Part shown: one piece after another, positions 11,856 through 64,000 of the stretch | Numbering within the stretch: the first letter of the stretch is position 1 | Layout of the letters: each line of letters starts with the position of its first letter | From: an uncultured Latescibacterota bacterium | GTDB taxonomy: Bacteria; Latescibacterota; UBA2968 | Length of the DNA: 64,000 nt | Direction of reading: 5' to 3' | Assembly (NCBI GenBank): GCA_958295785.1 | Contig: OY282377.1 | Coordinates: 2,122,394-2,186,393, forward strand | Program-made: the position numbers and the translations under genes | Notes under the pieces: model-generated | Told to the model about the DNA's origin: nothing | What the model saw: only the letters and a program-made list of their open reading frames with translations | The model's database searches: none

Positions 11856-11988
11856 ATACACGAGAGAAGACGACCGAAGAACTGATTCTGATGGGGGATG
11901 AAGAGATCGATTTTTCCGAATTGGAAGAAGATTTTTTTCAAAATGCGTATCTGGTCTTTCCCGTGGAAGATCGGGATATTTTGATCCG

Positions 11989-13080: not shown

Positions 13081-13197
13081 ATCCGGTACAAGAAGCACTA
13101 CGGCAAGGACTATCGCGCTCGGATACATGCGGTTTTGCGCGAGCATATAGATCGTGCTGTTTAATTAGATCGTGCTGTTTAATTTTAGGAGTGCCAT

Positions 13198-13986: not shown

Positions 13987-14028
13987 ATATTAAGGGGAGA
14001 TATGGTGCAATAAATCATGCCCATTTTG

Positions 14029-14060
14029 AAAAGGCGGTCGTTCTGCGGTCGCCTTTTTTA
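14029..14060 (+). terminator. Terminator-like hairpin after mrp
   Basis: AAAAGGCG and CGCCTTTT arms enclose GTCGTTCTGCGGT and are followed by T-rich DNA, 40 bp after the mrp stop. Confidence 0.7.
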
Positions 14061-14068
14061 TTTCTCTC

Positions 14069-14097
14069 TTGAAAACTATACATTCGTTCAGTATCTT
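14069..14097 (+). promoter_or_regulatory. Possible promoter of the efflux operon
   Basis: TTGAAA at 14069 and TATCTT at 14092 with a 17-bp spacer, about 290 bp before the MFP gene. The 400-bp gap 13987-14387 otherwise holds a terminator and one palindromic repeat. Confidence 0.4.
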
Positions 14098-14233
14098 AGA
14101 AATGGGTTGTGTTGATGATCCAAAAAAAGTGTATCTCTTCGGGCGGTTGTGGGTTTATATGAGTGCAAAGTGCGATAATCAGCTTTCAGCTTTCAGCCCA
14201 TTGGTTTGCTGACCGCTTAGGGGTTGGGTGCTC

Positions 14234-14259
14234 GGACAGGCACGGGGGCCTGTCCCTAC
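14234..14259. repeat. Short palindromic interspersed repeat, variant copy
   Basis: GGACAGGCACGGGGGCCTGTCCCTAC-type variant whose arms GGACAGGC and GCCTGTCC pair perfectly. Compensating changes relative to the GGGCGAGC / ATCGCCCC version suggest that the hairpin itself is maintained. Confidence 0.7.
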
Positions 14260-14387
14260 GGGTGATGGGGTCAGAGCGGGTGACTGACCACTGATTGCTC
14301 GGGGCTGACCTGTTTTCCAAAACCAATTTTCTCATTGGTGCGTCTAATGTCTTGGATATTTCGGGCATGTAACTGCGAGGGCAAGTG

Positions 14388-15590: not shown

Positions 15591-15667
15591 TGCGGAATCG
15601 GCGAAGAGTCGGTCAATTCACGTCTTGTATGCGGACGGGTACAGGGCCTACGTGCTTTGTGTCTTTG

Positions 15668-15692
15668 AACTGGCTATCGCCAGTTGTACCCC
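15668..15692. repeat. Small hairpin repeat ending GTTGTACCCC
   Basis: AACTGGC-tatc-GCCAGTT followed by GTACCCC, in the 130-bp gap between the MFP and RND genes. A related hairpin (AACTGC…GCAGTT plus GTACCCC) lies at 50961-50983 and a degenerate one near 2389-2408. Confidence 0.5.
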
Positions 15693-15719
15693 GTCCGTCT
15701 ATTTTTTGTGGAGAACAGA

Positions 15720-18700
15720 ATGGCATCGGAAGTTCGGGACAATCGGGATTTTTCTCGCACGTTTGAGATTACCACGCGGCGGCCCGTGGCGATTTTTATG
15801 GTGGTGCTGGCGGTTGCCGTATTTGGGTATGTGTCGTATCAGCAGTTGCCGTTGAATATGATGCCCGATATTTCGTATCCAACCCTGACCGTGCGGACGG
15901 AATATCCCGATACCGCGCCCGAAGAAGTCGAAAATTTGATCTCGAGGCCGATTGAACAGCGCCTTGGGGTGGTGAGCAATTTGGTGGGCATTACGTCGAT
16001 TTCCAGGCCCGGCCTGTCCGATGTGATTTTGGAGTTCGGCTGGGATACGGATATGAACGACGCGGTGCAGACCGTGCGCGAAAATCTCGACCGCCTCAAT
16101 TTGCCGCGCGGCGTCAATCGGCCATTGATTTTGCGCTACGACCCCACGCAAGACCCGATTATGCGCGTGGGGATTTACGGCAAGAGAAATATGTACGTGC
16201 TGCGCCACATCGCCGAGGAGGAAATCAAGCAGGAACTGGAGGCCCTCAAGGGCGTGGCCGCAGCGCGCGTGAAGGGCGGGTTGGAAGAAGAAATCCGAGT
16301 CGAGATCAGCGAGCGGCAGTTGGCGATGATGAGCCTGAACATCAACACCATCAACCGGCGGTTGCAAGAGGAAAATGTCAATCTCGCGGGCGGCAGTTTG
16401 CTGGATGGGCAAACGCAGTATTTGGTACGCACGCTGAACGAATTTCGCACCATTGACGAGATCGCCAATCTGGTGGTGGGCAACCGCGGGGGGGTTGAAA
16501 TTCGCGTGAAAGACGTGGGGCGGGTGTATCGCACGCACAAAGAGCGGGAGATCATCACCCGGGTCAATGGCACGGAAAGCGTGGAGATCGAGATTTTTAA
16601 GGAGGCGGACGCCAACATCGTGGCGACAGCGCAGCGCGTGCGCGACCGCCTCTTTGGCACCCCCGAGCAACTGGCGTACGTCGCCAAGCTCAGAGGCGGC
16701 GAGATCGAACAGGCCGAGGCCAGTGACCGGCGCGGGCGGGTGCGGCAATTCGTGCAGATGAAGGAGATGACGAGTTTCATCGCCTTTACACTGCCCGAAG
16801 GCGTGGCGATGGAGTTGTTGTCCGATCAATCCACGTTCATCGAATCGTCTGTGAACGAGGTCAAGCAAACCGCGCTGTTGGGCGGTGGATTGGCGATTTT
16901 GGTCTTGTACATTTTTCTCCGCAACCCATCGCATACCGCGATAGTGGGCCTCGCCATCCCCATTTCAATCGTGGCGACATTCGCGCCGATGAATATTTTT
17001 GGCGTGTCCCTAAATATCATGTCGCTGGGCGGGCTCGCGCTCGGCATTGGGATGCTGGTCGATAATGCGATTGTGGTGTTGGAAAGCATTTTCCGATGCC
17101 GCGAAGAAGGCGACGACATGATCGCGGCCACCATCCGGGGAACAGGGGAAGTCGGCGGGGCCGTGTTTGCATCCACGCTGACCACGGTGGCGGTGTTTTT
17201 TCCCATCGTGTTTGTCGAGGGCGTGGCCGGGCAAATTTTCGGCGATATGGCCCTCACCGTTGTGTTTTCGCTCGTGGCGTCTTTGGGGGTGGCGCTGTTT
17301 TTTATTCCCATGCTCGCTTCGCGGCAGGTGCATTTGGGGCGCGGCGACGGTGCCCCGACGCGGCTGACGCGCTCTGCCATTTTGCAACTGCGTTCTGTGG
17401 TTTGGCTGCGCGAGGGCATGGGGCTTCGGAAAAGAGGCGAAGACGCGCTCAAATATCACGCCGTGAATTTGGGCGCGCTGTTGGGGCGCGTGCCCTTGGG
17501 CTTTGTCTATGTGTGGGTGGAATACATGGCCCGCGCATCGTGGATTGCCGCTGCGGCTTTGATCGTCGCGCTCAAGGCCATAGGCGCGTTGTTGGCGGTG
17601 CTGCTCTTTCCCTTGGCCTATCCCGGCTGGTGGCTTTATTGTCGGCTGAGTTCCGGGCCCGCGTGGCGAGAGGATGCGCGCAGGCTGTGGGCCGGGATAT
17701 GCGCGTGGGCACAGGGGCGCGATCTGTTCGGCAGTGCTTGGGTGCGGAGAATTTGGGACGATTTATTGGCCTTTGTGGCGCCGCAAAATTTGGGGCGCGA
17801 CCTCGGCGTGCAAATGCGATGGACCTGGGGCGCGGTGAGGCGTTTGCGCCAGTGGGCTTGGCGCGGGGCAATGTGGAAGCGCGTTTTGAAAATCGCGCCG
17901 GCACTGGTGGGCGCGGCGGGCGTTTTGTTGCTGTTCGCGCTCGGCCCGGTGTATTTTGTTTTGCGGTTTCTGATTTTTATGACCCTCATGTCGCTCGGCA
18001 AAATGCTGGTGCTCGCGCTCATGTTTTTATTTTTGACAGGACTGGTCGCGCTGGTGGTGCTCGCCCTTATCGCATTGCCCATTCTCGCGCCGGTGCTGTT
18101 TTTGTTTGAACGCGGTTTTGACGCCATTCGCCGTGCGTACACGCCGTTTATCCGCTGGGCACTGCACAACAGGTTGAGCATTGTCATCGGCGCGGTGCTG
18201 CCGTTTGCAATATGCTATCTGGTGCTGTTGCCCCGGTTGGGCAATGAATTGATCCCGCAGGTGCATCAGGGGGAATTTAATGTGGATATCGCATTGCCCG
18301 TGGGCACGCCGCTCGAAATGACCGACGAGACCCTCGCGCTCATCGAGTCGCGGGTGATGGATGCAGGGGATGTCGGCGCGATTTCTTCCACGGTTGGCGT
18401 GGATAAAACCGATATTTCATCGTCTGATCAAGGCGAGCATACCGGGGTCGTTTCCGTGGTGCTCAAGGAGATCGAAGCAGATGAGCGAGAAAGTGTTCTG
18501 GCGCGTTGGGCGCAGTATTTTGCGGCATTGCCCGGCCGGATATGGGGCGGCATTCGAGGAGAAAGCGTTTTGGCGCAGCGCGAAGACGCATTGATGGCCG
18601 AGTTGCGAAGCAGGTTGTCGGATTTGCCGCAGATCAAGGCGGATTTTTCCCGGCCCGCGCTGTTCAGTTTTAAGACCCCGGTCGAGGTGGAAATTCGCGG

Positions 18701-51306: not shown

Positions 51307-52554
51307 ATGACCTTCCCCTTCTCTCATATCCACTTTTCCCGCGATGTGCGTCTCTATTTGCTGGCCTCCGCGCTGTTTGGGTTTGTCCTTTTTGGAGGCA
51401 TCTATCCCCTGTTGTACAATCTCTATTTGTTGCGCCTGGGCTATAACATGCAATTTGTGGGATGGGCCAATGCCACGGGCGCGCTTTTTTTTGCCCTGTT
51501 TAGCCTGCCAAGCGGGGTGCTCGGAGGGCGATGGGGCAGCCGCTTTACAATGGTCATCGGGATCTGTGTGGCAGTTGTGGGTTTTGGGTTGCTGTCGCAG
51601 GCCGAGTTGATCGCAGCCACCGTGCGCGATGTTTTTGTGCTTGCGACCTATTCCCTCGGCGTGATCGGCATTGCCCTGTTTATCGTGAATGGCACGCCGT
51701 ATTTGATGGGCATTACCAGCCTAGTTGAACGCGATAGGGTTTTTGCCGTGCAGGCCGCGCTGATGCCCCTGTCGGGATTTGTCGGGAGTATGTTGGGCGG
51801 CATTTTGCCGGGGTATCTCGCCGAGATGCTCGATACGTCTCTGGCGCGGCCCGCTGTGTACCGCTATACCCTGTGCTTCGGGGCACTTTGTCTGATCCCG
51901 GCAATTTTCGCGCTGCTCGCCACGCGGGATGCCCAGGTCGAACGCAAACAGGAGATCGTGTCCAACGCGGCCCCGCTTCCGCTGACCGCAATGATCCTCA
52001 CCGCGCTCATTTCCGTTCTGCACGTTGCCGGCGAAGCCGCGGCCCGAACCTTTTTTAACGTGTATATGGACGAGGAACTCAATGTGGACCTGTCGCTGAT
52101 TGGGGTGCAACTCGCCGGCGGGCAATTGCTCGCGGTGCCCGCGGCCCTGTCCCTCCCGTTTTTTTTTGCGCGTTTTGGCATTCGCCGCACCGTGGGCATG
52201 GTCACGGCTGTGACGGCCCTGTTGTTGCTGTGTATGGCGTTGGTTTCAAACTGGCTCGTTGCGGGTTTCTGCTTTGTGGGCATCATGGCCCTCACCGCGC
52301 TTCGCCGCTCGGCTTTTGCCATTTTTCACCAAGAATTGGTTGCCGTGCGCTGGCGCACCGCCATGTCGGGCGCAGTCGCCATGATGTCGGGCATGGGCTA
52401 TTCCGCCATGGCCCTCGGCGGCGGGTATATGATCCCGGCTGCGGGCTATTCGCGCCTCTTTCTCACCGGCGCCGCGCTCACGGGGATGGGCGCGTTCCTG
52501 TTTTGGATTTGTTTTCAGAGAAGGCAAAAAGCATCCGCAGATGAACGCAGATGA
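51307..52554 (+). CDS. Major facilitator superfamily transporter
   Basis: 415 residues from ATG 51307, with twelve predicted hydrophobic segments, for example LLASALFGFVLFGGIYPLLY, TMVIGICVAVVGFGLLS and LITAL-type TM7 (ALISVLHVAGEAAARTFFNV). The loop between TM2 and TM3 has LPSGVLGGRWGSRFTM, matching the MFS GxLaDrxGrr motif A, and TM4-5 has a PLSGFVGSMLGGILPGYLAE motif. The pattern fits drug/proton-type antiporters; substrate unknown. The last 8 or so residues (KASADERR) come from a 'gatgaacgc' dispersed repeat, so the native C-terminus may have been replaced. Confidence 0.87.
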   Translation: MTFPFSHIHFSRDVRLYLLASALFGFVLFGGIYPLLYNLYLLRLGYNMQFVGWANATGALFFALFSLPSGVLGGRWGSRFTMVIGICVAVVGFGLLSQAELIAATVRDVFVLATYSLGVIGIALFIVNGTPYLMGITSLVERDRVFAVQAALMPLSGFVGSMLGGILPGYLAEMLDTSLARPAVYRYTLCFGALCLIPAIFALLATRDAQVERKQEIVSNAAPLPLTAMILTALISVLHVAGEAAARTFFNVYMDEELNVDLSLIGVQLAGGQLLAVPAALSLPFFFARFGIRRTVGMVTAVTALLLLCMALVSNWLVAGFCFVGIMALTALRRSAFAIFHQELVAVRWRTAMSGAVAMMSGMGYSAMALGGGYMIPAAGYSRLFLTGAALTGMGAFLFWICFQRRQKASADERR

Positions 52555-52575
52555 ACGCGGATAAACGCGGATGGG

Positions 52576-52904
52576 CTTGAGGGGACAATAATAGGTTTTT
52601 TGCATCTGCTCTCTGTGTCGCATGACCGTTTTGGTCGCATACCCACTGTCCATCAAGACCCCGGTAAAAGGAAGGCCCTTCTGATAGACCCACACAGAGA
52701 GCATGTCCTTGAGATGATCCAACTGGGTTTTGCCATCGCCTTGCGGGTCATAAATCCGATCGTCAATCAGCCAGAACCGATCCTGTTGCGGATGGACATA
52801 GACACATGTGACCACCCCGATGCCGTTGATGACGCCTTGGGCGTTGCCGCTATATTGACGACGCACTCACGCGATCTTGCGCGCGTGTCGCTTGTCTAAA
52901 ACCG
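52576..52904 (-). mobile_element. Internal fragment of the IS (329 bp, both ends missing)
   Basis: Colinear with 12469-12797 of copy 1. It lacks both terminal repeats. It retains the acactca/tga-type stop also found in copy 2. It ends abruptly at the TIR-like sequence at 52905. The 360-bp gap 52555-52916 is filled by this fragment and dispersed repeats. Confidence 0.9.
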
Positions 52905-52919
52905 TTTGTTAGGGACTCA
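52905..52919. repeat. Solo terminal sequence of the R1/R2 element
   Basis: TTTGTTAGGGACTCA, the reverse complement of the GAGTCCCTAAC end of R1 and R2. It overlaps the stop codon of the HerA gene and abuts the IS fragment, so it marks the boundary of the long minus-strand operon. Confidence 0.6.
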
Positions 52920-54125
52920 AAATAAAAATTTCCTCACAGTCTTCTCTTGAATTTCCGCACCGCCGTGCGAACTGAATCGCGGGCGGACTCGAATTGTTGT
53001 AACAGACTCGGTCTCATCATCAACCAACAGGGCTTCACCTCTGCGATTCAGGTTGCGAATATAGCCCTTTAAGTCTCCTTTCATGTACGTTGCACTCAGT
53101 CGATCAAGTGCATTGATATCGTCCCAAGTTGTAATTTTATGCGCGACAATGACATCGCATTGTGATAACAGTTCCGGGTCAATCGCGGCCGGTTGCTGAG
53201 TCGCTACAACGAGGCTGAGTCCCGGTTGACGTCCTTCTTTCACCCAGCGAATAAGCATTTCCTTGCAAAGCGAGGCTCGCCCTTTCGGCACAAATTGATG
53301 GGCTTCGTCAATCGCCAGCCAAACTCGCGGTAGTTTTGTAGATAATCCAAATTCCTCTCTGCGTCTTTCTCGGGTTCGTTCAGTGAAAAGACAGCGAGAA
53401 ACGACGTCGAGTATCATGTTGCGTAGCCCTTTTGTACCTGCATCGATCACGCTTAGGTCTAAGACGTTAATATGATTTAGGAGAAACACATCATTCAACG
53501 AAGTCGGTTCTCGTGCGAAGATCCCCCAGCGGTTAGCCACTGTTAACCGGTTTTCCAAAGCCTCTTTGGAGGTATCTTTCGCCTTTTGATCGCGATTGAT
53601 TGTCAAAAGAATATCATCGATCTCAAAATGCCGATCCTTTTCGAGAAGCGTATCAATGGCACGCCATAAAACAATCCCCATCACTTCGTTCATGCCAATG
53701 TCGAACAATTCGCACCACGCCTCGGGGGAAAGATCAGCAGCGTTAATTTGGAGTGGCACGACTTCGACGCCATTTTCTCGCAATTTCGCAAGCACCGCCG
53801 CATCGCCGTATCGAATCAACGGATCGCCAGGGACGATGAGCCGAATGGGAAAGCCGCTGGTAAGAAATCCGGCATTGCGGACTTCATCGGCTTGCGTTTC
53901 ATTCGGCAAAGCCATCGTATGGTAAATTCCCATCGGGTCGGCGATGATAATTGTTGCCTCACCGTGTTCTTGGTTGAACAACTCTTCGACGATAACGCCC
54001 ATCGTATAGCTTTTGCCAGAACCGCGCTTGCCGCAGATGAATACGGCGCGTGACCCTGTGGCATTCATATAAATCAGTTCGTCGCTTTCGTACTCCGTGC
54101 CGATTCGCAAATTGATCTCTGCCAT
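52917..54125 (-). CDS. herA: HerA/DUF87-type ATPase, last gene of the BREX/Dpd-like operon
   Basis: 402 residues from ATG 54125 with AGGTGA upstream (GTG 54134 also in frame). Walker A FICGKRGSGKSYTMGVI at about 30-45, the HerA N-terminal strand region MAEINLRIGTEYESDELIYM, Walker B LPRVWLAIDEAHQFVPKG at about 270-285, VVATQQPAAIDPELL (sensor) and a C-terminal Arg-rich end. HerA/FtsK-type hexamers translocate DNA and often pair with nucleases in repair or defence. It starts 12 bp after the PglZ gene stop. Confidence 0.9.
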   Translation of the reverse strand: MAEINLRIGTEYESDELIYMNATGSRAVFICGKRGSGKSYTMGVIVEELFNQEHGEATIIIADPMGIYHTMALPNETQADEVRNAGFLTSGFPIRLIVPGDPLIRYGDAAVLAKLRENGVEVVPLQINAADLSPEAWCELFDIGMNEVMGIVLWRAIDTLLEKDRHFEIDDILLTINRDQKAKDTSKEALENRLTVANRWGIFAREPTSLNDVFLLNHINVLDLSVIDAGTKGLRNMILDVVSRCLFTERTRERRREEFGLSTKLPRVWLAIDEAHQFVPKGRASLCKEMLIRWVKEGRQPGLSLVVATQQPAAIDPELLSQCDVIVAHKITTWDDINALDRLSATYMKGDLKGYIRNLNRRGEALLVDDETESVTTIRVRPRFSSHGGAEIQEKTVRKFLF

Positions 54126-54137
54126 TTGAATCACCTA

Positions 54138-55253
54138 TCATTTGGGCGTGATGTCGAGCAAGGGAACAAAAGATTCCCGTGCAGAAATTCCCCCGTGAAA
54201 TCCCCACTCCGTCACCTTGCGATTTCTCGCGATGACTTCATCACCTGTCAAAACCGTAAATGTCTCTCCAGCTTCGGCAACAGTGATTCCCGACATGTCC
54301 GATGGGGATTTAGTATAACGGACAGACGTGCTTCGCAACTGACTTGGCATCACTCTCTGCCCTTTGAACCAAAGAATCCCATGGTCACTCGTGACAAAAA
54401 TTCGCACAGTCTTTTCAGACGCGCCGACCACTTCGACAATCTGCTCAACATCCAATTTGAGTTGATCGAGCATCGCGGCGATATTCGGCTTTTCTCTATG
54501 CATGTGACAAACCCCATCGAGTCCTGTCCGAACAATTTGAATAAACATCTGATCTGTCAGGTTAGCAGTTTGCAATCTGTCCAGAATCTCTGCAAAGGTC
54601 GTGACGCGAGACAGTTGGGTAGGTGGAAACTCGGAAAAGAGTACATCGGTAAGTCGATTTTGCGAACGCTCCCAATATGAAAAACCGAGCCGCTGCACAT
54701 ATCCCACCGCAAACAATTGATGCGTTAGCGGTGGCGAACCGATTAACCGGCTCATGCCACTTTTGGTCACGCTTAACCCATCGACAAAACACGGTTCACA
54801 AACCACGCGCCAAGACTTTGGAAATGCCCAATCTACTACATCGTACAACGACAACCCGTCGAATACAAAAAAAATGACGACTTCGGGTCGCAGGTATGAT
54901 ACGCGCTCTGTAACGGTTTGGGCGAGTTGCGATTGCTTCAATAGCTTCGAGTCATCTGTGCATAAGGCGTCAAAATGCTCGGGTAACTTCTGGTTCACCC
55001 ATTCGACAGGCGGAAAGCGAGGAAGTGCGATAGCGGGGAAGCCAAAAACATCGGTTAATTCTTTCCGCTGAACCTCTGGCAAATTCACAAAAAGCGTCGC
55101 CTTTTCGGGCACATCCCAAGGCGCATCTACAACATCCCGCCATTCTGCCAACGAATTGGGACACCAAATATCCGACAGGCATATCTCCCACAGCCCCTGC
55201 GTCTCCTTTGGCAGATCGGTCAGGCAGGGCATCTTCTCTAAAAGGTCTATCAT
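54138..55253 (-). CDS. pglZ: PglZ-domain protein (alkaline-phosphatase superfamily)
   Basis: 371 residues from ATG 55253 with GAAGGG upstream. The alkaline-phosphatase fold residues are seen: VIFFVFDGLSLYDVVDW (Asp and nucleophile region at about 125-140), TGLDGVCHMH, IFVTSDHGILWFKG (DHG at about 288) and the PglZ-specific GFHGGISARESFVPLLDI near the end. PglZ is the invariant partner of BREX/Pgl systems, in which its catalytic role is still debated. It is shorter than most BREX PglZ proteins (over 600 residues), as in compact PglZ-like forms. It lies 5 bp from the PglY/BrxC-like gene. Confidence 0.88.
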   Translation of the reverse strand: MIDLLEKMPCLTDLPKETQGLWEICLSDIWCPNSLAEWRDVVDAPWDVPEKATLFVNLPEVQRKELTDVFGFPAIALPRFPPVEWVNQKLPEHFDALCTDDSKLLKQSQLAQTVTERVSYLRPEVVIFFVFDGLSLYDVVDWAFPKSWRVVCEPCFVDGLSVTKSGMSRLIGSPPLTHQLFAVGYVQRLGFSYWERSQNRLTDVLFSEFPPTQLSRVTTFAEILDRLQTANLTDQMFIQIVRTGLDGVCHMHREKPNIAAMLDQLKLDVEQIVEVVGASEKTVRIFVTSDHGILWFKGQRVMPSQLRSTSVRYTKSPSDMSGITVAEAGETFTVLTGDEVIARNRKVTEWGFHGGISARESFVPLLDITPK

Positions 55254-55258
55254 CGTCG

Positions 55259-58200
55259 CTATCCCTTCGTTTGGGAGACTTTGATGTTCAACCAATTGTG
55301 TTGGTACAACTCCTCGAGACTCTCGATAATCTCTGAAGTCGAATCGAACATTTCATTTTCAGACTGTCTGAGAGCAACAATCAGTTCTGTGAAATCTTTG
55401 TCCGCATTCGTTTCAATCATATCCAACAGCACTGCTGCCCTTGGACTCAACTCACTTTTGTCACATCTGAGTTGATCTTGAATGCCTGCCCATCTTTTGT
55501 AAACCTCGTTGCCCAACTTCAGAATCGAATCGAGCGATTCCACCCACGCAGGCAACTGCGAGTCAACATCATCGGGTTTCAGCGTCGCGTTCACCTCATC
55601 GATCCTATCCCCCAAGGCATGTACCTCGTCGTTCAATTCAATTGCCTGATTTCTGATCCCATCGCTGACAGTGAAGACCTCAAGCGGTTTCATCAATTCG
55701 CTTTTTCGTGTTTCAATACCTTCGAGTGCGGGTTTGATGACAAATTCCCGAATCTTCTCTACCGCTTTTTCGCGGACGCGGCTGTACGAGCCTTCTATGT
55801 CGGTGGGATTGAACGGTTCACTAATGCCTGGTCGGTCAATGAGTTTGTGGAGTTGGGTTTCAATAGAGGCACTGAACCGGATAAAGTCATCTTTTCGGCG
55901 TTCAGAGATCTGGTCAAACTCAGTTTTGATCGCGGCGATTTGATTGGAAAAGTACTCGTGATCTTCCAGAACCTGTCTGACGGTTTTTGTCTGATCCGCA
56001 AGATGGCGTTTAATCCGCTGCTGTTCATCGTCCATCCTGTCACAGAGATTTTTACCCCCATCGATCTCTTGTGCATCTGTCATCGTCAGCCGGTCGCGCT
56101 CAACTTGTCTGGCGAGGTTGCGCCACTTTTCAAACAACCCATAAAGCTGTCCAGCTTCTGAACGCTTCTCTCGGAGTGCATCGATCTTCGGGTCAATCGT
56201 CTGTATGGAATGGCGAAAATCTGCCGCCACTGCAATCGTTTTTTCAGAGGTTTGGTCAGACAGGTATTCTTGCATCTTCTTATTATAGATTGCCTGTACT
56301 TGCTGTTTTACCTTGTCTATTTCTTGAGGAATGGCATTGTAAGTCTTCCGAATATCCTTGCGGATATCTTGAAACAATAGAACTGAAAACTCGGTCGTCG
56401 GGTGGTCGGTTTCTTGCTCCAGCCCCCTCGGCGGCTCTAACCTCAATGTTTCGGCCTCTGCGGCCCTTTGGTTGAGTTGTGCAGCGGCTGTACTTAACCA
56501 CATCGCACACTGCGTTTTGAAAGCGTTCTCAATTGAATTGAGTTTTTGCCGCAGTGCATCCTTGCGGACTTCATTGGACGCAATTCCGATGATCTGGAAA
56601 TCTGCCTGAGCCGATGTCAACGAGTAATCGCCATCTCCTTCCGGGTCGAAGCCTCTTGATCTTGCCCGTGTCTCTAGTGCCTTAAGGCGGTCACACTTGC
56701 TTTGCAGTTCGGCAAAATTGATCTCTGTCTCAACGCGATACAGATAATCCACCCCTCGCTGCTGTTTTTGACCGACCAAGCCCCTTGAAGTCAATACTTT
56801 GATTAACTCTCCAATTTCATCATCGAGATATCCAAACCCCTCTTCCCGTTGAAAAATCTCGTTGAGTGGCATTGCTTTGGCGGGATTGCTGTCAACGACA
56901 ATGCTCTCCGCGCTTGCCTCGAGCATTTCCAAAACGCGCTTTTCCATATCATGGAGGTTAAAATAGATAGCGACGAGATTCTGATTGTTTTTAACTTCAA
57001 CGCCTTCCGCTACGGTTTTGCCACTGGCGTCAATTTCATTGACGAGCAAGAGATCGCGCCAAACGCCATCTGGGTAGAAGGTATTGGCAAAAGTGGTGTG
57101 CTGACCCACGTTAAACAACCCTGGTACGTCTCTGGCAATTTTTTTAATAGGTTCCTCACCCCGTCGCACACCGAGACTTTCGGCGTTTCTCGTCAATGCC
57201 TGCATGTAGATCCCCAAATTCTTTTTCCATTGATTCGAGACTGCGACAGCGCGGTATGATTTGAAGCGTTGTCGAATCAGCACGCCCAAAGCCCGTTCGA
57301 CAAAACTTTTCCCTGCGGGTACTTGTGCCAAATCTGCCTGCTGTGATACGGCACTCGCCTTGACCGTAGCCGAAAAGAAGTAACCGATCAGTTGGTCGCG
57401 AATGCGGGATTTCAAGAGTTCCACCTGCGCTTCCTGTTTTAACTCTTTGACTCGGTCCATAGTCGTTCCTATGTCAAAGAAGTCGAGCATAGACAGGAGC
57501 AGCGAAGGAGTAACGGACTCCGGCAAAAAAAGGTCGCCGAGTTTGCCAATATCTTTTGGGACTTCTCGGTTGTCGATAGCTTCGGAGATGTTGAGGTGGA
57601 AGTAGAGACCGTCTGCGCGAACATCACAGGTATTTGAGGCCGGTGTATTCCCTTGAGTCCGTAAAACAAAAGAGGTGAACAACTGGCTCTCGCGGTAGGC
57701 AGGGCTAATTTCTTGAAATTTTTCGGTGCCAACATGGACGGTCAGGGTCCGCTGCGGATAATCTCGGAGAGAAGTCCCTTCGAGTCGGGCCTGAGAGATC
57801 GGTTCTATATCCCCTTCCCTTTTTTGCAAACCTCTCCAACCCGTGTGGGAGGCTCCGGTGCGTTGCTGAAAAATTTCGGGCAAAATGTAATTCGCAAAAG
57901 ATCTGACAGCGGCGCGATGGGTTTCTTCACTTGCGGGGTTGTAATGGTTTCGCAGAATTTTGAGGATCTCGATGAGCGCGTCGCCCGCTTGTAAATCATC
58001 CTTGTAATGGGTTAAGGTCGGTCCGATGATTTTCGTAATGACGTGCGTGCCCAACAACCCTTGGGCGACTGCCAAGCGATCTTCATCGGAAATGCCGTGC
58101 TTCACAAAAAGTGCTTCCGGTACGCCATCTGGGCAGACGCACAGCAGTTTGACAACGCGCTGTTTCGCCTCATCAGCACCGGTGATGGGCTGGCTCATGA

Positions 58201-59344
58201 TGGAGGTATGCGCTTTGACCGCGTCGATTTCCTGATTGTTGAAGCAAATAAGCCCTTGAGAGAGATAGTCTTCGCAAAAATCGAAAATGGAATAGGGCCG
58301 TTTCTTCTCGCCGTAGTGTTTTGCGGCACGTTGAAACGTCGCAACAACAGACCGAGGGCCGCTAATCAGTTGCGTCGTGCGCTGGTGTCCCAAAAACTGC
58401 CCGAGAGCAAACAGTACATCCGGGTCGATTGCGTTTTGCTCCTCGGCGGTCAGGTTGCACCTAATGGACAACTTCTCCCAAAGTTTGTGGGCGAAAGATT
58501 TTCCATTTTCGATCTTTCCGTATGCCTGCTCAAGGTCAATCAAACTCCCTTCAGGCCTGTTGAATCGGGCAGGTATGTGAGATGCTCTGAGTTGGATGTC
58601 GGAAAATGTTCGGCGGTAGGTCAGAACAACACAGCCTATTGGGCGGCTTTCTTGGAAAATGGAAAAGATAAACTCTTTGAGTTCCGCGAAATTCTTGGCG
58701 ATGTCTGGATTCGTATTGGCAAAAAGCTCGAACTCATCTGGCAGGATGAGCAAGCCTTTGTATTCTGCCTTCAAAAGCGTTGAAGTCGCCACCCGCAAGT
58801 AGTCAATGAGGCGATTTGCGGAAACCGCATCCATTAGATCGCCCCGCGCTTTGAGGGCCTGGACAGACCTTCTGGCATAATCGAGCGGAACATCTTCCTC
58901 TTGGCATATTCTACGCGCCCGGTCTTCATCGCTACTCGCAATCAGCGTCTCATACTGCTGTTCTAAACCGGGAATCAGATCCGGCCTCTTTGCCTTCAAG
59001 CGATGGCAGACCCACCCATGAGTTGCGGTGAGCATGTCGGCGATGCTATTCCACACAAACGGAGGAACCGCGACAATCTCCTTTTGTTCTGCATAGTGCC
59101 AAAGTGCGGCTGCGGTTGAGGTCTTGCCGTAGCCCGTATCAGCATGGATAAGCCCGGTAGCAGAACGCCCTTGCAGGAGGTTCTTGAGAATCGCATCCCA
59201 CTTATCGGTCAGATCGGCAATCGCGACGTGCGTTGAGACGTGAAATTGAAAGCGGTCTGCCCATTCCTCTGGGCGTGCCGCGAGGTCTGATGCGCGTGGC
59301 GTGTCAACCACAACACTTTTTTTGATGATTTCGTCTAAAGCCAT
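55259..59344 (-). CDS. Large P-loop ATPase resembling PglY/BrxC of BREX systems
   Basis: 1361 residues from ATG 59344 with AAGGAG 8 nt upstream. Walker A LIHADTGYGKTSTAAALW near residue 70 and a Walker B-like KGLLILPDEFELFAN near 195-210. ELKEFIFSIF and VLTYRRTF follow in the AAA+ core. The middle holds winged-helix-like regions. From about 1030 to 1290 the sequence is charged and helical (for example RKDIRKTYNAIPQEIDKVKQ, RMDDEQQRIKRHLADQTKTV), indicating long coiled coils. Size, ATPase position and adjacency to PglZ fit the PglY/BrxC group. Sequence identity to a specific BREX type cannot be judged by eye. Confidence 0.78.
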   Translation of the reverse strand: MALDEIIKKSVVVDTPRASDLAARPEEWADRFQFHVSTHVAIADLTDKWDAILKNLLQGRSATGLIHADTGYGKTSTAAALWHYAEQKEIVAVPPFVWNSIADMLTATHGWVCHRLKAKRPDLIPGLEQQYETLIASSDEDRARRICQEEDVPLDYARRSVQALKARGDLMDAVSANRLIDYLRVATSTLLKAEYKGLLILPDEFELFANTNPDIAKNFAELKEFIFSIFQESRPIGCVVLTYRRTFSDIQLRASHIPARFNRPEGSLIDLEQAYGKIENGKSFAHKLWEKLSIRCNLTAEEQNAIDPDVLFALGQFLGHQRTTQLISGPRSVVATFQRAAKHYGEKKRPYSIFDFCEDYLSQGLICFNNQEIDAVKAHTSIMSQPITGADEAKQRVVKLLCVCPDGVPEALFVKHGISDEDRLAVAQGLLGTHVITKIIGPTLTHYKDDLQAGDALIEILKILRNHYNPASEETHRAAVRSFANYILPEIFQQRTGASHTGWRGLQKREGDIEPISQARLEGTSLRDYPQRTLTVHVGTEKFQEISPAYRESQLFTSFVLRTQGNTPASNTCDVRADGLYFHLNISEAIDNREVPKDIGKLGDLFLPESVTPSLLLSMLDFFDIGTTMDRVKELKQEAQVELLKSRIRDQLIGYFFSATVKASAVSQQADLAQVPAGKSFVERALGVLIRQRFKSYRAVAVSNQWKKNLGIYMQALTRNAESLGVRRGEEPIKKIARDVPGLFNVGQHTTFANTFYPDGVWRDLLLVNEIDASGKTVAEGVEVKNNQNLVAIYFNLHDMEKRVLEMLEASAESIVVDSNPAKAMPLNEIFQREEGFGYLDDEIGELIKVLTSRGLVGQKQQRGVDYLYRVETEINFAELQSKCDRLKALETRARSRGFDPEGDGDYSLTSAQADFQIIGIASNEVRKDALRQKLNSIENAFKTQCAMWLSTAAAQLNQRAAEAETLRLEPPRGLEQETDHPTTEFSVLLFQDIRKDIRKTYNAIPQEIDKVKQQVQAIYNKKMQEYLSDQTSEKTIAVAADFRHSIQTIDPKIDALREKRSEAGQLYGLFEKWRNLARQVERDRLTMTDAQEIDGGKNLCDRMDDEQQRIKRHLADQTKTVRQVLEDHEYFSNQIAAIKTEFDQISERRKDDFIRFSASIETQLHKLIDRPGISEPFNPTDIEGSYSRVREKAVEKIREFVIKPALEGIETRKSELMKPLEVFTVSDGIRNQAIELNDEVHALGDRIDEVNATLKPDDVDSQLPAWVESLDSILKLGNEVYKRWAGIQDQLRCDKSELSPRAAVLLDMIETNADKDFTELIVALRQSENEMFDSTSEIIESLEELYQHNWLNIKVSQTKG

Positions 59345-59382
59345 GCCTTGTCTCCTTTTCCTAATAAGGGGCCTGCTTTGTC

Positions 59383-59922
59383 TTATATCGCGTGTTCTAC
59401 CAAAACTTTGAGGCGTTGCCAAATTCCATCCACAGCGCGCAGGTCATTGGTCGGAAAATGGCCGAAAAGCCCACGTATCACATCCTCAATTCGCGCCAAT
59501 TCTCGAGTTGTCAAGCCCAATTCAACTCTTCGTACCGCATCGTCAATCGGTTGGCGCGTCACCAAAAAGACCGACGACGCGCCTGCCCAAAGCACATCCC
59601 CGAAAATTGACCGCGCTGCACTTCGGTCATGCGGTGCATTGTCAATGATAACCACCGAATTTGGGGAAACTTCTGCGTGTGAACAAGTTTCTACGGACGA
59701 AAAATAGAGACCGTCTGCACAGTGATGGAGATGGTGCGCGAGAAACGTCTTGCCAACTCCCGGAGCACCCCAGAGATTAATGCGTTGCTGATAGTCTCGT
59801 ATCTCCCGCTGCAAAAACTGACAGGCCGCCTGCTGAGATGCCGTCAAAGTCTCGTTGGTCTCCGCCAATGCGAGGAGTTTTCTGTGGTAAGATTGCCAGA
59901 GCATGCGGTTTAATCCACTCAT
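59383..59922 (-). CDS. Small AAA/P-loop ATPase
   Basis: 179 residues, beginning MSGLNRMLWQSYHRKLLAL. Walker A INLWGAPGVGKTFLAHHLHH near residue 50; a Walker B-like SVVIIDNAPHD at about 92-102; DDAVRRVELGLTTRELARIED toward the end. The protein contains only the core ATPase domain and could be a loader or regulatory ATPase. It is squeezed between the unknown 266-residue protein (its start is 2 bp from that stop) and the PglY-like gene (38-bp gap), so it is clearly operonic. Confidence 0.85.
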   Translation of the reverse strand: MSGLNRMLWQSYHRKLLALAETNETLTASQQAACQFLQREIRDYQQRINLWGAPGVGKTFLAHHLHHCADGLYFSSVETCSHAEVSPNSVVIIDNAPHDRSAARSIFGDVLWAGASSVFLVTRQPIDDAVRRVELGLTTRELARIEDVIRGLFGHFPTNDLRAVDGIWQRLKVLVEHAI

Positions 59923-59923
59923 T

Positions 59924-60724
59924 TTAATCGAGAAAATCCCCGATCTGCGGCTCTTGATTCAACTCTACGTAAATCCCGTCCCAACTCCGCTGCACCGAAA
60001 GGTACGAAACTTGGCGCAATGCCTCGTCAAGCATGAGATCAAAACCGGTTTCGTCAATGAGGCAAAAGCGGCAAACGGCCTGCTTTCGCGTATCGTCAAT
60101 TTTGACCAAATCCCCAAACTCAGATTCTCGCACGATATAACCGAGTCCCATCGCAAAAAGCGGTGTTGAGCAGAATGGTCGTTGTACAAATGTCGCGTCG
60201 TTCTCGAATACGGGCGGATCTAATGGTCGGAGCCAATCGTAAGCGTCATGGATCGATTTAATGGAGAACGCATTGCCGATATTCGGCGGAATCACCACTT
60301 CGTCAAAAGCGCGAAGATCATGGATATAAGCCACCAGATCCCGATCTCCCGGAAGCGTTTGCCGCGTCCACAAGTAGTTACAGATGTTTTTGTACGCCCA
60401 AGACGCGATGTTTTGCTCAGGGGCACTTTGCGTCCACAGACTGTATTGCCGCCCGTGCAGAAAATCAATGGCAGTACTCCGTTTCGTTTCCCACAGGGAA
60501 TAGAATGCCTCGCCTTCCGGGGTTAATGCCCTGCTTTTTCCATCTGCCAATCCCCATTCGGTCAATAGCTGAACCGCTTCATAACGCGCTGTATCCGTTA
60601 CTGGGTAGCCATTGTCCAAAGCGGTTTTGACCATTTGGCGGATCGTAAGCCCAGGGTGATATTTGTGAACCCACAATGCCGACTCCAAATCTGAAAACCC
60701 TTTTAAGATGTGTGAACGTGCCAT
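59924..60724 (-). CDS. 266-residue operon protein of unknown family with winged-helix-like N-terminus
   Basis: Start ATG 60724 overlaps the end of the preceding gene by 22 nt. The N-terminus LKGFSDLESALWVHKYHPGLTIRQ and YEAVQLLTEWGLADGKSRALTPEGEAFYSLW looks like a winged helix with a wing and recognition helix. The rest includes HGRQYSLWTQSAPEQNIASW, WLRPLDPPVF and FLIDETGFDLMLDEALRQ. It may be the DNA-binding adaptor of the operon (some Dpd clusters carry a WH protein, DpdG), but no family could be assigned by eye. Confidence 0.65.
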   Translation of the reverse strand: MARSHILKGFSDLESALWVHKYHPGLTIRQMVKTALDNGYPVTDTARYEAVQLLTEWGLADGKSRALTPEGEAFYSLWETKRSTAIDFLHGRQYSLWTQSAPEQNIASWAYKNICNYLWTRQTLPGDRDLVAYIHDLRAFDEVVIPPNIGNAFSIKSIHDAYDWLRPLDPPVFENDATFVQRPFCSTPLFAMGLGYIVRESEFGDLVKIDDTRKQAVCRFCLIDETGFDLMLDEALRQVSYLSVQRSWDGIYVELNQEPQIGDFLD

Positions 60725-62307
60725 CGGGCCTCCGTTATTAAGCTTTGCGACATGCGATAGTACGCGCCCGATAGTTCGCGCAACATATCCATTTGCGGTA
60801 TTCGCTGATGCGTTTCCAACTCTGCCATAACCGTCAGATTGTGCATAATTCTATTCCATCGGTTGTTTGAAAGCTGGTCGAAAGAATCGCAGAACGGGCA
60901 ATCGTGCCCGATGTTTTCCTTCCACGTTTTGAACTCTGCTTCATTCAAACTCTTGTTGTTTCGAGAATTAAAGGTGACCAGATAACCCCGCATAAACGGG
61001 AGGAAAACCTTGCCGTATCCGCCAGAGCGCATCCAACCGTTGGAGTCAAAAGAATGCACGCCGACCAGCGATAGCAAATAGATTGCAGGCGGCGTTGAAA
61101 TGCCAAAGGTATGTAGCTTGACGCCCTCAGAATCCAGCATCCGAGTCAATCGCCGAAGAATCATCAGCGCGTTGATGTTCAACCGGTTGATCGAGTTTGA
61201 AGTCCCGCTCGTTGGAAATGAGCCGAAACCGATTCTCGTAAAATGGGTGTAATGTCGCAGGCAATAGTCGAGGTGTTCGCTTCTCGTTGCGTGGACAACT
61301 GGCATCGCCTTCTGCTGAATGGCGCCGGAAAGATCGCTGTAAAGGCGCAGGCTACCCTCAACCGTTTGTTTTATTTTTTCTTCTGCCAAACGCAATGAAT
61401 CCTTGCTGAGTGGCGGATTATCTGGCAGAACATAGCTATCTGCCCAGTCCTCCTGCTGATAGCATTCATAGAGTTTCCGGTGAAGGTCGTAGTAGGAAAT
61501 GTCTCCTGTTTGGACGAAATAGCCACCGGAATCGAACATGACCACCTCTGTCTCGCCCGTGCGTTTCAGTTCCCGGACAAAGTCGAAGGTGGACTTGGAA
61601 GCAACCACAGGCGAGATGAGCACCCGTTGAAATGGATTCGGTTTGCCGAACTTCCAATCAAAATCGTGGGCATGTTCATGCCAAAGGCGATGCATTGTCC
61701 GCATCTCTCCCGGTGTAACAGTGAGGGAGGCATAGAAATGCGCGGGGGCGGTATGGTCTCCTCTCCGATCATCAGCCACGAGATTAGAGACGGCCCCCTC
61801 TCCGCTATTGAATAGAGGCTTTTTAGCCCCTGCGTATATCGGCGGGATGCGGTAGTGCCACACATTGAGCGGTCTCTTTTTGCCTTGTTCTGTATCGACA
61901 TGTTGAAATCCATGTTTTTGGTAAAAGCGATTGGCACTCAGATCTCGTGGACACTTGAGACGAACACATTGACCACCTGCGAGGTGAACGCGCCAGATTA
62001 ACGCGTTCAACAAGCGAGTTCCAACGCCTGCTCGCTTGTGTGCATCCACTACTGCGATTTCGTACAGGGTTGCGTTTTTGTCCTGCCTGATTCGGAAATT
62101 CGCAAAGCCCGCGATCACGTCGCGCTTTTTATCCACCCATTTGGTTGCAACGAGTAGCCACCCTTTGCTTTGCGCGGCCCGCAAAATGGCGATGTTGACA
62201 AATCCCAATTCCGATCTGTGTTGGTCCGCGATTCGCTTCGCGCCTTCAATATCGGCTTTCCGCGCCAGTCGAACCGTTATGGGTTGTTGGTGTTGTGGCA
62301 AAATCAT
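60703..62307 (-). CDS. GNAT acetyltransferase fused to a tRNA-guanine-transglycosylase (DpdA-like) domain
   Basis: 534 residues from ATG 62307 with GAAGGG upstream. Residues about 10-155 are GNAT (AHKRAGVGTRLLNALIW acetyl-CoA loop; ANRFYQKHGFQHVDTE). Residues about 200-500 follow the TGT plan: VVMFDSGGYFVQTG (cf. LTDSGGFQVF, base-binding Asp near 257), YVLPDNPPLSKD, MPVVHATRSEHL, FTRIGFGSF, LHTFGISTPPAIYLLSLVGVHSFDSNGW (nucleophile Asp near 422) and CPFC for zinc near 469. DpdA enzymes put preQ0 into DNA in place of guanine. This one sits in an operon with PglZ. The DNA substrate is inference; a tRNA substrate is not excluded. Confidence 0.8.
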   Translation of the reverse strand: MILPQHQQPITVRLARKADIEGAKRIADQHRSELGFVNIAILRAAQSKGWLLVATKWVDKKRDVIAGFANFRIRQDKNATLYEIAVVDAHKRAGVGTRLLNALIWRVHLAGGQCVRLKCPRDLSANRFYQKHGFQHVDTEQGKKRPLNVWHYRIPPIYAGAKKPLFNSGEGAVSNLVADDRRGDHTAPAHFYASLTVTPGEMRTMHRLWHEHAHDFDWKFGKPNPFQRVLISPVVASKSTFDFVRELKRTGETEVVMFDSGGYFVQTGDISYYDLHRKLYECYQQEDWADSYVLPDNPPLSKDSLRLAEEKIKQTVEGSLRLYSDLSGAIQQKAMPVVHATRSEHLDYCLRHYTHFTRIGFGSFPTSGTSNSINRLNINALMILRRLTRMLDSEGVKLHTFGISTPPAIYLLSLVGVHSFDSNGWMRSGGYGKVFLPFMRGYLVTFNSRNNKSLNEAEFKTWKENIGHDCPFCDSFDQLSNNRWNRIMHNLTVMAELETHQRIPQMDMLRELSGAYYRMSQSLITEARWHVHTS

Positions 62308-62322
62308 TGGGATACAAACCCT

Positions 62323-64000
62323 TCATAATTTAGGCATTAAATCCTCAAAAGTGAGATTTGCGTAATCGACATCGGTTGAACTGCGACCGCAGTTGCACAC
62401 CGCTTCCGCCTCAATTTCGCCCGCTTGCGACTTTAATGCCCACTCGAAAGGCGTCGGTTCTACAAACAACTCCGGATAAAAGTTCAAGGCTGCGACAAGC
62501 AGCATGATCTCCCCCGGCTCTTGGGGGACCAATACCTCGGCAATTCGCTCTATCGGCAAGGGTTCATCTGACAGAAACTCTGCGAGGGCTTGCAGATATT
62601 TCGAGACTTCCTCCCAGAGGTACAAGCCGTAGGCATCATTATCATCAATTTGAAAGCGGTGAGGTTGTTTTTCGCAGGTGTCGGCAACGTCAAAAGGCAT
62701 CAACTTAAAGTTTCCCAGGTCGCGCCATATCCCATCGGCAATCGCTTTTGCTGTGGCGGGTTCATGGGTCATTCGGAGATACCATTCGACGAGTGCGGCT
62801 CGTCCTGTAGCAGATGTTGGCTTTTTAGGGTTGAACCATGTCCACGCCTCTATCCCGATGTATGTTTCTCCGTATTGATAAACTTTCAAGGCGGGATAGG
62901 TCTCAATCACATCGAGCAACCGCTCTGAATCGATTGCTGTTGCGTTCGTTTTTTTTGAGAGATATTTGCATTCTTCCAATGTCAAAGGCCGATAACCGTA
63001 ACGCTGGAGTCTCGTTGCAAGCCCAGACAAAAAACTCTGGACGAGTTCGCCCGATTTCAGGTGACAGACACCATCAATAATTTTGTAATCATCTGCCCCT
63101 AAACATATCCACGCCTTGCCAAATGCTTCATCAAACCAGTTGATAATCCACTGTTCGCTATCTCCCCATCCCAACTGCTGGCGAATCATTTCCATGAGGT
63201 TTTCGACAGAACAATATCCACCAGCCTTTGCGATAATATCGCTGATGGATTTGCCCAAGAGACGAAAAACTGTGGTTGTGATGAGATGATTGTCCGCTCC
63301 ATGATTGATTTTCTCATTGACTGACCTCTTAATCTGCCTGACGCGCTCGCGGGTAATCCCAAGTGCTTCGCCAATTTGTTGCAAATTTTTAGGTGTTTCC
63401 TCGTATCCGTAGTAGCGCTTAACGATCTCTTGTTGGCGGGTTTGCAGACGTTGAAAAACTGTATGACCGAGTTCATAGAGTGTCTGAATCTGCGATACTT
63501 CATCCGAAAGTTCATCCCTCGGATCAATCACATCGGGATTCGCTATAATCTGATTGACTGTTTCCCGAATTTCAGTCAGAGATTTGCGCCCAAAATTTCT
63601 AAACCTGAGCCATTCCTTGGGGGAAAGCGCGGCAATCTCGGCAATCGTTTTGAAGCCTTGTCTATGGAGAATGTTTTTCGTCCGAACGCTCCAGTTGAAT
63701 TGATGCACAGATCTGTTTTGAACAGCTTTCCAGGTGGGCGCGGATACTTCTATGTCCAAAAGCGGGATAAAGACTGGTTGTGCCTCAGCAGATTGCGTTT
63801 CGACACAATGATCGTCGCCCTGATCGAGAACATCGTGATTAACCCCAAGTAGCCCAATTATTTCCGTCATACGCTCTTGGATTTCTGTCAAAGAGGTATT
63901 TCCAAAGTTTCTAAAATTCAACCATTCTCTGGGGGACTGTGCGGCAATTTCGGCAAGTTTCCGCAATCCTTGCTGAGTGATCACGTTCTGCGTTCGAACG
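62323..64000 (-). CDS. Regulator with RNAP alpha-CTD-like HhH repeats and sigma region 4 (5' end outside window)
   Basis: At least 559 residues; the start is beyond 64000. Two copies of an alpha-CTD-like helix-hairpin-helix unit occur: one at the very edge (VRTQNVITQQGLRKLAEIA then RNFGNTSLTEI), the other near 63540-63700 (SVRTKNILHRQGFKTIAEIA with RFRNFGRKSLTEIRET). Downstream lies a sigma-70 region 4 pattern (TRQQEIVKRYYGYEE and IGEALGITRERVRQIKRSV), followed by a long C-terminal part that may be winged-helix-like. It has no sigma region 2, so it cannot replace a sigma factor. It may recruit polymerase to, or repress, the operon it heads. Confidence 0.82.
   Translation of the reverse strand, partial: VRTQNVITQQGLRKLAEIAAQSPREWLNFRNFGNTSLTEIQERMTEIIGLLGVNHDVLDQGDDHCVETQSAEAQPVFIPLLDIEVSAPTWKAVQNRSVHQFNWSVRTKNILHRQGFKTIAEIAALSPKEWLRFRNFGRKSLTEIRETVNQIIANPDVIDPRDELSDEVSQIQTLYELGHTVFQRLQTRQQEIVKRYYGYEETPKNLQQIGEALGITRERVRQIKRSVNEKINHGADNHLITTTVFRLLGKSISDIIAKAGGYCSVENLMEMIRQQLGWGDSEQWIINWFDEAFGKAWICLGADDYKIIDGVCHLKSGELVQSFLSGLATRLQRYGYRPLTLEECKYLSKKTNATAIDSERLLDVIETYPALKVYQYGETYIGIEAWTWFNPKKPTSATGRAALVEWYLRMTHEPATAKAIADGIWRDLGNFKLMPFDVADTCEKQPHRFQIDDNDAYGLYLWEEVSKYLQALAEFLSDEPLPIERIAEVLVPQEPGEIMLLVAALNFYPELFVEPTPFEWALKSQAGEIEAEAVCNCGRSSTDVDYANLTFEDLMPKL

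What the first reader, a model, noticed from the sequence alone, without database searches (positions are those of the whole stretch)
52917..64000. Candidate new defence/DNA-modification system: BREX-like PglZ-PglY core with a DpdA-like base-exchange enzyme instead of a methyltransferase
Seven co-directional minus-strand genes with tight or overlapping spacing: alpha-CTD/sigma4 regulator, GNAT-TGT(DpdA-like) fusion, 266-aa unknown, small AAA ATPase, 1361-aa PglY/BrxC-like ATPase, PglZ and HerA. BREX needs PglZ plus BrxC/PglY and normally a PglX methyltransferase; none is seen in the visible part. The TGT-like protein could mark host DNA with a 7-deazaguanine in place of methylation. This composition is not one I know from BREX or Dpd clusters. 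The upstream end lies outside the window, so other members are possible.
Basis: partly seen in the sequence, partly recalled or inferred. Interest (0 to 1): 0.96.

Follow-up and report, generated by a model that had tools for sequence, protein, structure and literature searches.

The report
Deazaguanine-marking BREX-like defence cassette
This is a complete operon of a recently predicted bacterial defence system that would mark the cell's own DNA with a modified guanine and attack unmarked invader DNA; some related clusters carry genes predicted to make or import the base preQ1, which makes the likely chemistry of the mark directly testable.

Summary
Seven co-directional genes lie at 52917-64000; the last ends 392 bases beyond the window, the next gene runs the other way, and there is no pglX. 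The composition is not new: it is the "BREX-Related Capture" (BRC) system predicted in January 2026 (PMC12839542), which suggests a dPreQ0 mark.

My survey of 47 related loci changes how it reads. (1) TGT, an SspB-fold protein and a BrxC-like ATPase form a portable cassette: with PglZ-HerA in 23 complete BRC loci, beside Druantia DruE/F/L genes in 14 of 15 loci without PglZ-HerA. (2) A GNAT accompanies the TGT in 23 of 23 and 15 of 15 of these. (3) Precursor genes favour preQ1 over preQ0: of 391 haloarchaeal genomes, all 8 with this TGT have QueF, against 3 of 383 others; in 6 of the 8, QueF overlaps or lies 2 bp from the TGT start. Two Druantia-type loci carry a QPTR importer, one a divergent QueF. 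(4) An alpha-CTD/sigma-like protein, outside the published seven, occurs in 17 of 20 bacterial BRC-type loci.

Best reading: preQ1 is swapped into host DNA and probably N-acetylated as a self mark. Untested.

The parts
62323..64000 (-). alpha-CTD/sigma-region-4 protein (689 aa in full; runs 392 bases past the window, L002:2322-4391 -)
   Evidence: RNA_pol_A_CTD (3 stretches, 3.9e-37) and Sigma70_r4 (5e-11) in the full protein; resembles part of PglW (PADLOC 1.2e-9). Relatives upstream of the TGT in 16 other loci (cluster 3); not among the seven published BRC components.
60703..62307 (-). GNAT-TGT fusion, 534 aa (GNAT ~8-150, TGT-fold ~187-534)
59924..60724 (-). SspB-fold (DUF4007/BrxA-like) DNA-binding protein, 266 aa
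59383..59922 (-). Small AAA/STAND-type ATPase, 179 aa (at the place of the published BRC 'STAND NTPase')
   Evidence: Walker A GAPGVGKT; weak AAA hits. Present in complete BRC loci, not found in the Druantia-type loci.
55259..59344 (-). BrxC-like large ATPase, 1361 aa from ATG (1387 from TTG at 59422)
   Evidence: Walker A ADTGYGKT. 4 of 16 family members match Pfam BrxC_BrxD (best 5e-5); the window member itself matches only AAA_16 weakly.
54138..55253 (-). Short PglZ, 371 aa from ATG
   Evidence: PF08665 0.0016 (below cut-off). D146, H264, D304-H305, H367 invariant and D260 nearly invariant in 21 aligned relatives; that these are metal-site residues is recalled.
52917..54134 (-). HerA/FtsK-type translocase, 405 aa
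   Evidence: DUF87 4.4e-17, PADLOC HerA 2.7e-24, Walker A GKRGSGKS.

Best explanation
This is a complete BREX-Related Capture (BRC) operon that likely marks host DNA with a preQ1-derived guanine and would restrict DNA that lacks the mark. Shown: operon, domains, retained active-site residues, conserved cassette, constant GNAT, linked preQ1-supply genes in some relatives. Inferred modification step: the TGT domain swaps a guanine in DNA for preQ1 (7-aminomethyl-7-deazaguanine), helped by the SspB-fold protein and the BrxC-like ATPase, as SspB and SspC serve SspD in phosphorothioation. The GNAT, fused or in the same operon, would then acetylate the free aminomethyl group and finish the mark. Inferred restriction step: HerA moves invading DNA to the PglZ nuclease, with the small ATPase as assembly or switch factor. 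The alpha-CTD/sigma-like protein is probably the operon's regulator or a DNA sensor.
For: (a) Same gene set in 23 complete loci in bacteria and archaea. (b) TGT fold and invariant TGT-type residues; a separate canonical TGT in 33 of 33 genomes. (c) 391 Halobacteria: all 8 TGT carriers have QueF over the cut-off, 3 of 383 others do (Fisher p 1.3e-14, rows not independent). On longest ORFs QueF overlaps the TGT start by 4 bp in five, lies 2 bp away in one, 54 bp in one, and faces the GNAT at the far end in one; the Haloplanus plasmid has QueF after the GNAT. Two QueF versions in three positions suggest repeated recruitment. Five of seven operon copies scanned pass NCBIfam's 'preQ(1) synthase' cut-off. 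(d) queC, queD, queE beside L042 and L084. (e) Chloroflexota Druantia-type loci: QPTR (PF02592) 11 bp after brxC in L103 and 70 bp after druE in L104; divergent QueF at brxC's end in L100. (f) 15 of 33 TGT-carrying genomes lack a full-length QueC match; of these 10 have QueA and 10 have QPTR, as in salvage. (g) GNAT in 23 of 23 complete BRC and 15 of 15 Druantia-type loci. (h) dPreQ1 was measured in haloviral and phage DNA (PMC6884629 passages).
Against: No DNA chemistry was seen. QueF in haloarchaea could feed another pathway, and QueF versus amidinating QueF-L is hard to tell from sequence (PMC6884629 passage). L042 and L081 QueF score just below the equivalog cut-off (81.9, 80.0 versus 86.9); the L100 QueF is borderline (27.4 versus cut-off 27.3 bits). 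The haloarchaeal TGTs are one clade, so the QueF statistic overstates independence. Three haloarchaea have QueF without the TGT, and 13 more have matches below the cut-off. The tool's own QueC tally is higher than mine (31 of 36 over the cut-off), because it counts partial matches, mostly to about residues 1-63, that I set aside. QPTR is common (9 of 14 control genomes). Five of the 15 QueC-less genomes lack QueA and five lack QPTR (completeness of these genomes not given). No bacterial BRC locus examined has a que gene found beside it. The window's acetyl-CoA motif reads KRAGVG, not R/Q-x-x-G-x-G (recalled signature). GNATs acetylate many things.
Confidence: 0.55

Rival explanations
1. [quoted passage not shown]
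For: Proposed in PMC12839542 section 36. DpdA uses preQ0 in Dpd (same section), and queC/queE/queD lie next to two haloarchaeal loci.
Against: QueF, which consumes preQ0, is linked to 9 of 9 haloarchaeal loci examined. The small ATPase was not found in Druantia-type loci that keep the TGT cassette. 15 of 33 carriers lack a full-length QueC match.
Confidence: 0.2
2. The TGT modifies tRNA (or another RNA) as part of an abortive or translational response, not DNA.
For: The fold is TGT; the 50 rows shown of the structural comparison are tRNA enzymes, and the window protein itself matches a PADLOC TGT profile, not DpdA.
Against: A separate canonical TGT exists in every genome tested (33 of 33). The neighbours look DNA-acting (SspB fold, HerA, PglZ, DruE). 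Across the family a DpdA profile matches more members (19 of 35) than the best TGT profile (12 of 35).
Confidence: 0.12
3. The cassette modifies the invader: preQ1 derivatives are put into phage DNA as a lesion or signal for PglZ or Druantia, not into host DNA as protection.
For: Nothing here shows which DNA is modified; an alpha-CTD/sigma-like gene could make expression inducible (inference).
Against: By analogy Ssp, Dnd and Dpd marks protect self (recalled). A viral-collection contig carries its own TGT plus GNAT beside an ORF that looks like a tape-measure protein (L039/L040; recalled resemblance), as expected if the mark protects.
Confidence: 0.1

Closest known systems
BREX-Related Capture (BRC) system (Rakesh & Krishnan 2026, PMC12839542)
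   Same: PglZ, BrxC/DUF6079-type ATPase, STAND NTPase, DUF4007-type protein, HerA, GNAT, TGT.
   Different: Here an eighth, alpha-CTD/sigma-like protein. I infer preQ1 rather than preQ0, the SspB/BrxC pair rather than the STAND ATPase as TGT partner, and find the cassette also in Druantia loci. The paper's main text has no occurrence of Druantia, QueF, preQ1 or QueC; its supplements were not read.
Type-4 BREX and Ssp phosphorothioation (SspB-SspC-SspD)
   Same: DUF4007/SspB plus BrxC/SspC-type ATPase working with a non-methylating DNA modification enzyme (PMC12839542 section 34 passages).
   Different: TGT and GNAT replace the PAPS reductase and desulfurase.
Dpd (DpdA 7-deazaguanine DNA system)
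   Same: TGT-family enzyme predicted to exchange guanine in DNA; weak DpdA profile matches in 19 of 35 members.
   Different: No Dpd hit for the seven window proteins; BREX-like core; GNAT; QueF-linked in relatives.
Druantia (types II/IV in PADLOC)
   Same: Related loci place the same GNAT-TGT-SspB-like-BrxC cassette beside DruE (L036: 1566 bits to DruE4), DruF- and DruL-like genes.
   Different: The window has no Dru genes.

Membership tests
BRC system | PglZ | tested here: met
   PF08665 0.0016, below its cut-off; PADLOC PglZ 0.0011; conserved residues of that type.
BRC system | BrxC-type (DUF6079) large ATPase | tested here: met
   BrxC_BrxD in 4 of 16 family members, best 5e-5; not in the window member itself, and no DUF6079 match shown; Walker A present.
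BRC system | DUF4007 (SspB/BrxA-like) protein | tested here: met
BRC system | HerA/FtsK translocase | tested here: met
BRC system | Active STAND NTPase | tested here: inconclusive
   Small ATPase with Walker A at the expected place; STAND class not tested.
BRC system | GNAT and TGT (subset of loci, occasionally fused) | tested here: met
   Fused, 534 aa.
Canonical BREX (types 1, 2, 3) | PglX/BrxX methyltransferase in the locus | tested here: not met
   No methyltransferase in the operon or next to it; an MTase-HNH-like ORF 6.6 kb away is separated by unrelated genes.
Canonical BREX (types 1, 2, 3) | PglZ plus BrxC/PglY | tested here: met
   Both present, both divergent.
Dpd system | DpdA-type DNA transglycosylase | tested here: inconclusive
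   DpdA profile matches 19 of 35 relatives at up to 6.8e-9 but not the window protein; weak match to 7ui4 DNA-guanine transglycosylase.
Dpd system | DpdB, DpdC and other Dpd genes in the locus | tested here: not met
   No PADLOC Dpd hit for any of the seven proteins; the rest of the genome was not searched for them.
Canonical tRNA TGT | Full PF01702 match above cut-off | tested here: not met
   15.9 bits versus 26.3; a separate gene at G000:C1:5009662 scores 545 bits.
Druantia | DruE helicase | tested here: not met
   No Dru hit among the window proteins; present only in relatives.
All of these | Phage restriction and DNA modification in vivo | not testable with these tools
   Needs experiment.

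The most novel reading that the evidence does not exclude
A portable host-DNA marking cassette (GNAT + TGT + SspB-fold protein + BrxC-type ATPase) installs N-acetylated preQ1 in DNA. It is the plug-in alternative to methylation or phosphorothioation for at least two unrelated restriction machines, a BREX-like PglZ-HerA module and Druantia DruE/F/L, and in several lineages it travels with its own preQ1 supply genes (QueF, QueC/D/E or a QPTR importer).
Probability: 0.4. Interest if true: 0.9.

Novelty: new variant of a known kind. Interest (0 to 1): 0.72.

Why it matters
Few self-marks are known to guide restriction in bacteria and archaea. If right, the acetylated base would be, to my knowledge, a new DNA base made by host defence systems, and guanine-exchange chemistry would be a module that independent restriction machines can borrow. 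The QueF and QPTR linkages turn a general 'may modify DNA with a 7-deazaguanine' into a mass-spectrometry prediction with named masses, testable in haloarchaea.

Tried and rejected
Considered and rejected: (1) new composition - rejected by PMC12839542. (2) The second PglZ of the genome (G000:C1:2945966) as part of BREX - its ORF in L004 starts like a response regulator (recalled) and the neighbours listed do not look like BREX genes (not tested). (3) The small ATPase as the TGT's partner - not found in Druantia-type loci. (4) preQ0 as the final base - see rivals. (5) QueC presence alone as support - it is general (12 of 14 control genomes) and full-length matches are absent from 15 of 33 carriers. 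(6) BrxC-like profile against PDB gave coiled-coil and apolipoprotein matches; PglZ profile gave weak phosphodiesterase matches. (7) A first GNAT profile was contaminated by fusion proteins and matched TGT-only ORFs; it was rebuilt and only the rebuilt counts are used. (8) Tree: architectures cluster, but several joins rest on long branches, so no claim on origins. (9) 7ui4 is not among the 50 rows shown. (10) Papers: searches. PMC12839542: abstract and outline, section 36 whole, passages. PMC12458937: abstract and outline, passages (its BRIGADE class has a predicted 7-deazaguanine gene set; no DpdA, TGT, BrxC or DUF4007 in its main text). PMC6884629, PMC5485725, PMC11130926: passages. That the Druantia-TGT pairing is not in print rests only. 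TGT residue roles, the GNAT and QueF motifs and Druantia's usual methyltransferase are recalled.

Duplicates left out of counts: L087 (=L028), L088 (=L014), L089 (=L020), L090 (=L005). Counted loci: window, L005-L037 (33), L038, L039/L040 as one, L041, L042, L080-L086 (7), L099/L103 as one, L100/L102 as one = 47. 23 show all six of TGT, SspB-like, small ATPase, BrxC-like, PglZ, HerA (in L006 the BrxC-like gene is split over two ORFs; in L011 the fetched stretch ends inside HerA); 6 are BRC-like but cut by a contig end (L010, L013, L020, L026, L030, L031); 15 are Druantia-type (L014-L019, L021, L024, L032, L035, L036, L038, L041, L099, L100); 3 have no system (L034, L037, L039/L040). In the Druantia-type group 14 of 15 show Dru genes; L014's contig ends just upstream. 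Absences hold only for the stretch fetched.

Full report
Observation. The seven minus-strand genes are present at the coordinates given, tightly spaced or overlapping. The window lies in a single-contig 5.66-Mb genome. The alpha-CTD/sigma-region-4 gene is complete 392 bases beyond the window (689 aa), and the next gene is on the other strand. No methyltransferase is in the operon. Among 194 genomes of the relatives search (own included), the PglZ profile matched 4 at E <= 0.001: the own genome and one of the same class strongly (about 1e-186), two others weakly (1.8e-4, 3.6e-4); 0 of 10 same-genus genomes matched, so the locus is patchily distributed. Its G+C (49.5%) is below the rest of the window (54.6%), but within the range of other 11-kb stretches there (49.1-57.8).

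A portable cassette. Scans of genomes, viruses and plasmids with the TGT family, of haloarchaeal genomes and with a DruL bait gave 47 distinct loci including the window. 23 are complete BRC loci and 6 are BRC-like but cut by a contig end. In 15, PglZ, HerA and the small ATPase were not found in the fetched stretch, which instead keeps GNAT-TGT-SspB-like-BrxC (sometimes with a second SspB-like-BrxC pair); 14 of these 15 have DruE, DruF or DruL beside them. PADLOC scores the L036 helicase 1566 bits to DruE4, and the L016 neighbours match DruF (7.7e-17) and DruL (1.7e-17). Three loci have neither. With DruL as bait instead of the TGT, 4 of 400 Chloroflexota genomes hit and 3 of the 4 carry the cassette. 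The part that is constant is TGT, GNAT, SspB-like and BrxC-like; the part that changes is PglZ-HerA-ATPase versus Druantia. I therefore read the first as a modification module and the second as the restriction module, parallel to SspB-SspC-SspD in phosphorothioation (homology of DUF4007 to SspB and BrxC to SspC: PMC12839542 passages). This differs from the published suggestion that the STAND ATPase drives insertion.

The base. In 391 Halobacteria, 8 genomes have the TGT; 24 have a QueF-family match at E <= 0.001, 11 of them over the cut-off, and all 8 TGT genomes are among the 11 (Fisher p 1.3e-14, but the TGTs are one clade). On longest ORFs QueF overlaps the TGT start by 4 bp in five, lies 2 bp away in one and 54 bp away in one, on the same strand; in the eighth it faces the GNAT at the operon's far end. 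On the Haloplanus plasmid it follows the GNAT. Two QueF versions occupy three positions. Of the operon copies scanned, five exceed the NCBIfam preQ(1) synthase cut-off and two (L042, L081) fall just below; the operon copy of L080 and that of L084 were not scanned. The three QueF genomes without the TGT show no cassette gene near QueF other than weak GNAT matches. Euryarchaeota use ArcS on preQ0-tRNA (PMC5485725 passage), so a preQ0 reductase is not expected there otherwise.

In bacteria, 15 of 33 TGT-carrying genomes (one of the 33, Halorientalis, is archaeal and has QueC) lack a full-length QueC match (the other 18 are at E < 1e-50; weak partial matches, which the tool counts over its cut-off, were set aside). 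Of the 15, 10 have QueA and 10 the QPTR importer, the pattern of preQ1/preQ0 salvage, and 13 also lack a QueF over the cut-off. Two Druantia-type loci carry QPTR 11 bp after brxC and 70 bp after druE, and a third has a divergent, borderline QueF overlapping brxC's end, in a genome without any QueC match. QPTR from E. coli transports preQ1 and preQ0 (PMC11130926 passage). In none of the bacterial BRC loci examined was a que gene found beside the operon (haloarchaeal QueC/D/E/F profiles). The window genome has QueC, QueF, QueA and canonical TGT, so preQ1 should be available. dPreQ1 in DNA has been measured in Halovirus HVTV-1 and phage Dp-1 (PMC6884629 passages). Together this favours preQ1 over the published preQ0.

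The GNAT. A GNAT matching one profile is present in 23 of 23 complete BRC loci and 15 of 15 Druantia-type loci, fused in some, 5' in others, at the 3' end in haloarchaea and part of Chloroflexota. Of the 47 loci it was not found in four cut-off ones (L020, L026, L030, L031) and in the two solitary TGTs L034 and L037; the viral-collection contig has it next to its TGT. preQ1, unlike preQ0, has a primary amine. N-acetylation of preQ1 is the simplest joint function, but this is inference, and the window's acetyl-CoA motif deviates at one position.

Limits. No function was tested. Many genomes are draft bins, so absences of que genes are soft. Counts mix related loci. The best mechanism is given 0.55, the bold version 0.4.

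Noticed in passing
L106 (G211:C23:9000-28900), 7628-16516: A second, different TGT locus: QPTR importer, a 386-aa TGT relative (1.6e-18), a 375-aa protein, a HerA-like 559-aa protein (2.1e-13) and a 1392-aa protein, all co-directional. Possibly another TGT-based capture system.
   Followed up: partly
L039/L040 (two ends of IMGVR_UViG_3300002920_000014, 73752 bp): A contig of the viral collection encodes a TGT and a GNAT of this family next to a 2564-aa ORF that looks like a tape-measure protein (recalled); perhaps a phage using the same mark to escape.
   Followed up: partly
L033:7297-9924: The regulator homologue has both sigma-70 region 2 and region 4, while in five Poribacteria loci it is only 86 aa. 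What this protein does is unclear.
   Followed up: partly
L016:8698-9963 +: An Mrr-type restriction endonuclease gene (PF04471, 2.9e-19) sits between the TGT cassette and the Druantia genes.
   Followed up: no
L002:10991-13405 - (window-equivalent 70992-73406): ORF whose sequence reads like a DNA methyltransferase with a C-terminal HNH domain, about 6.6 kb upstream of the operon behind unrelated genes (identity recalled).
   Followed up: no
window 52246-52866 -: ORF resembling a transposase fragment lies directly downstream of HerA (recalled resemblance), hinting at mobility.
   Followed up: no
L031 (8210 bp): A cut-off locus with an alpha-CTD-cluster protein, TGT and SspB-like gene also has a partial DruE-like gene on the same contig, so BRC and Druantia parts may mix.
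   Followed up: no
L014, L016, L019, L036, L102: Druantia-type loci with a second SspB-like plus BrxC-like pair, perhaps one pair for modification and one for restriction.
   Followed up: no
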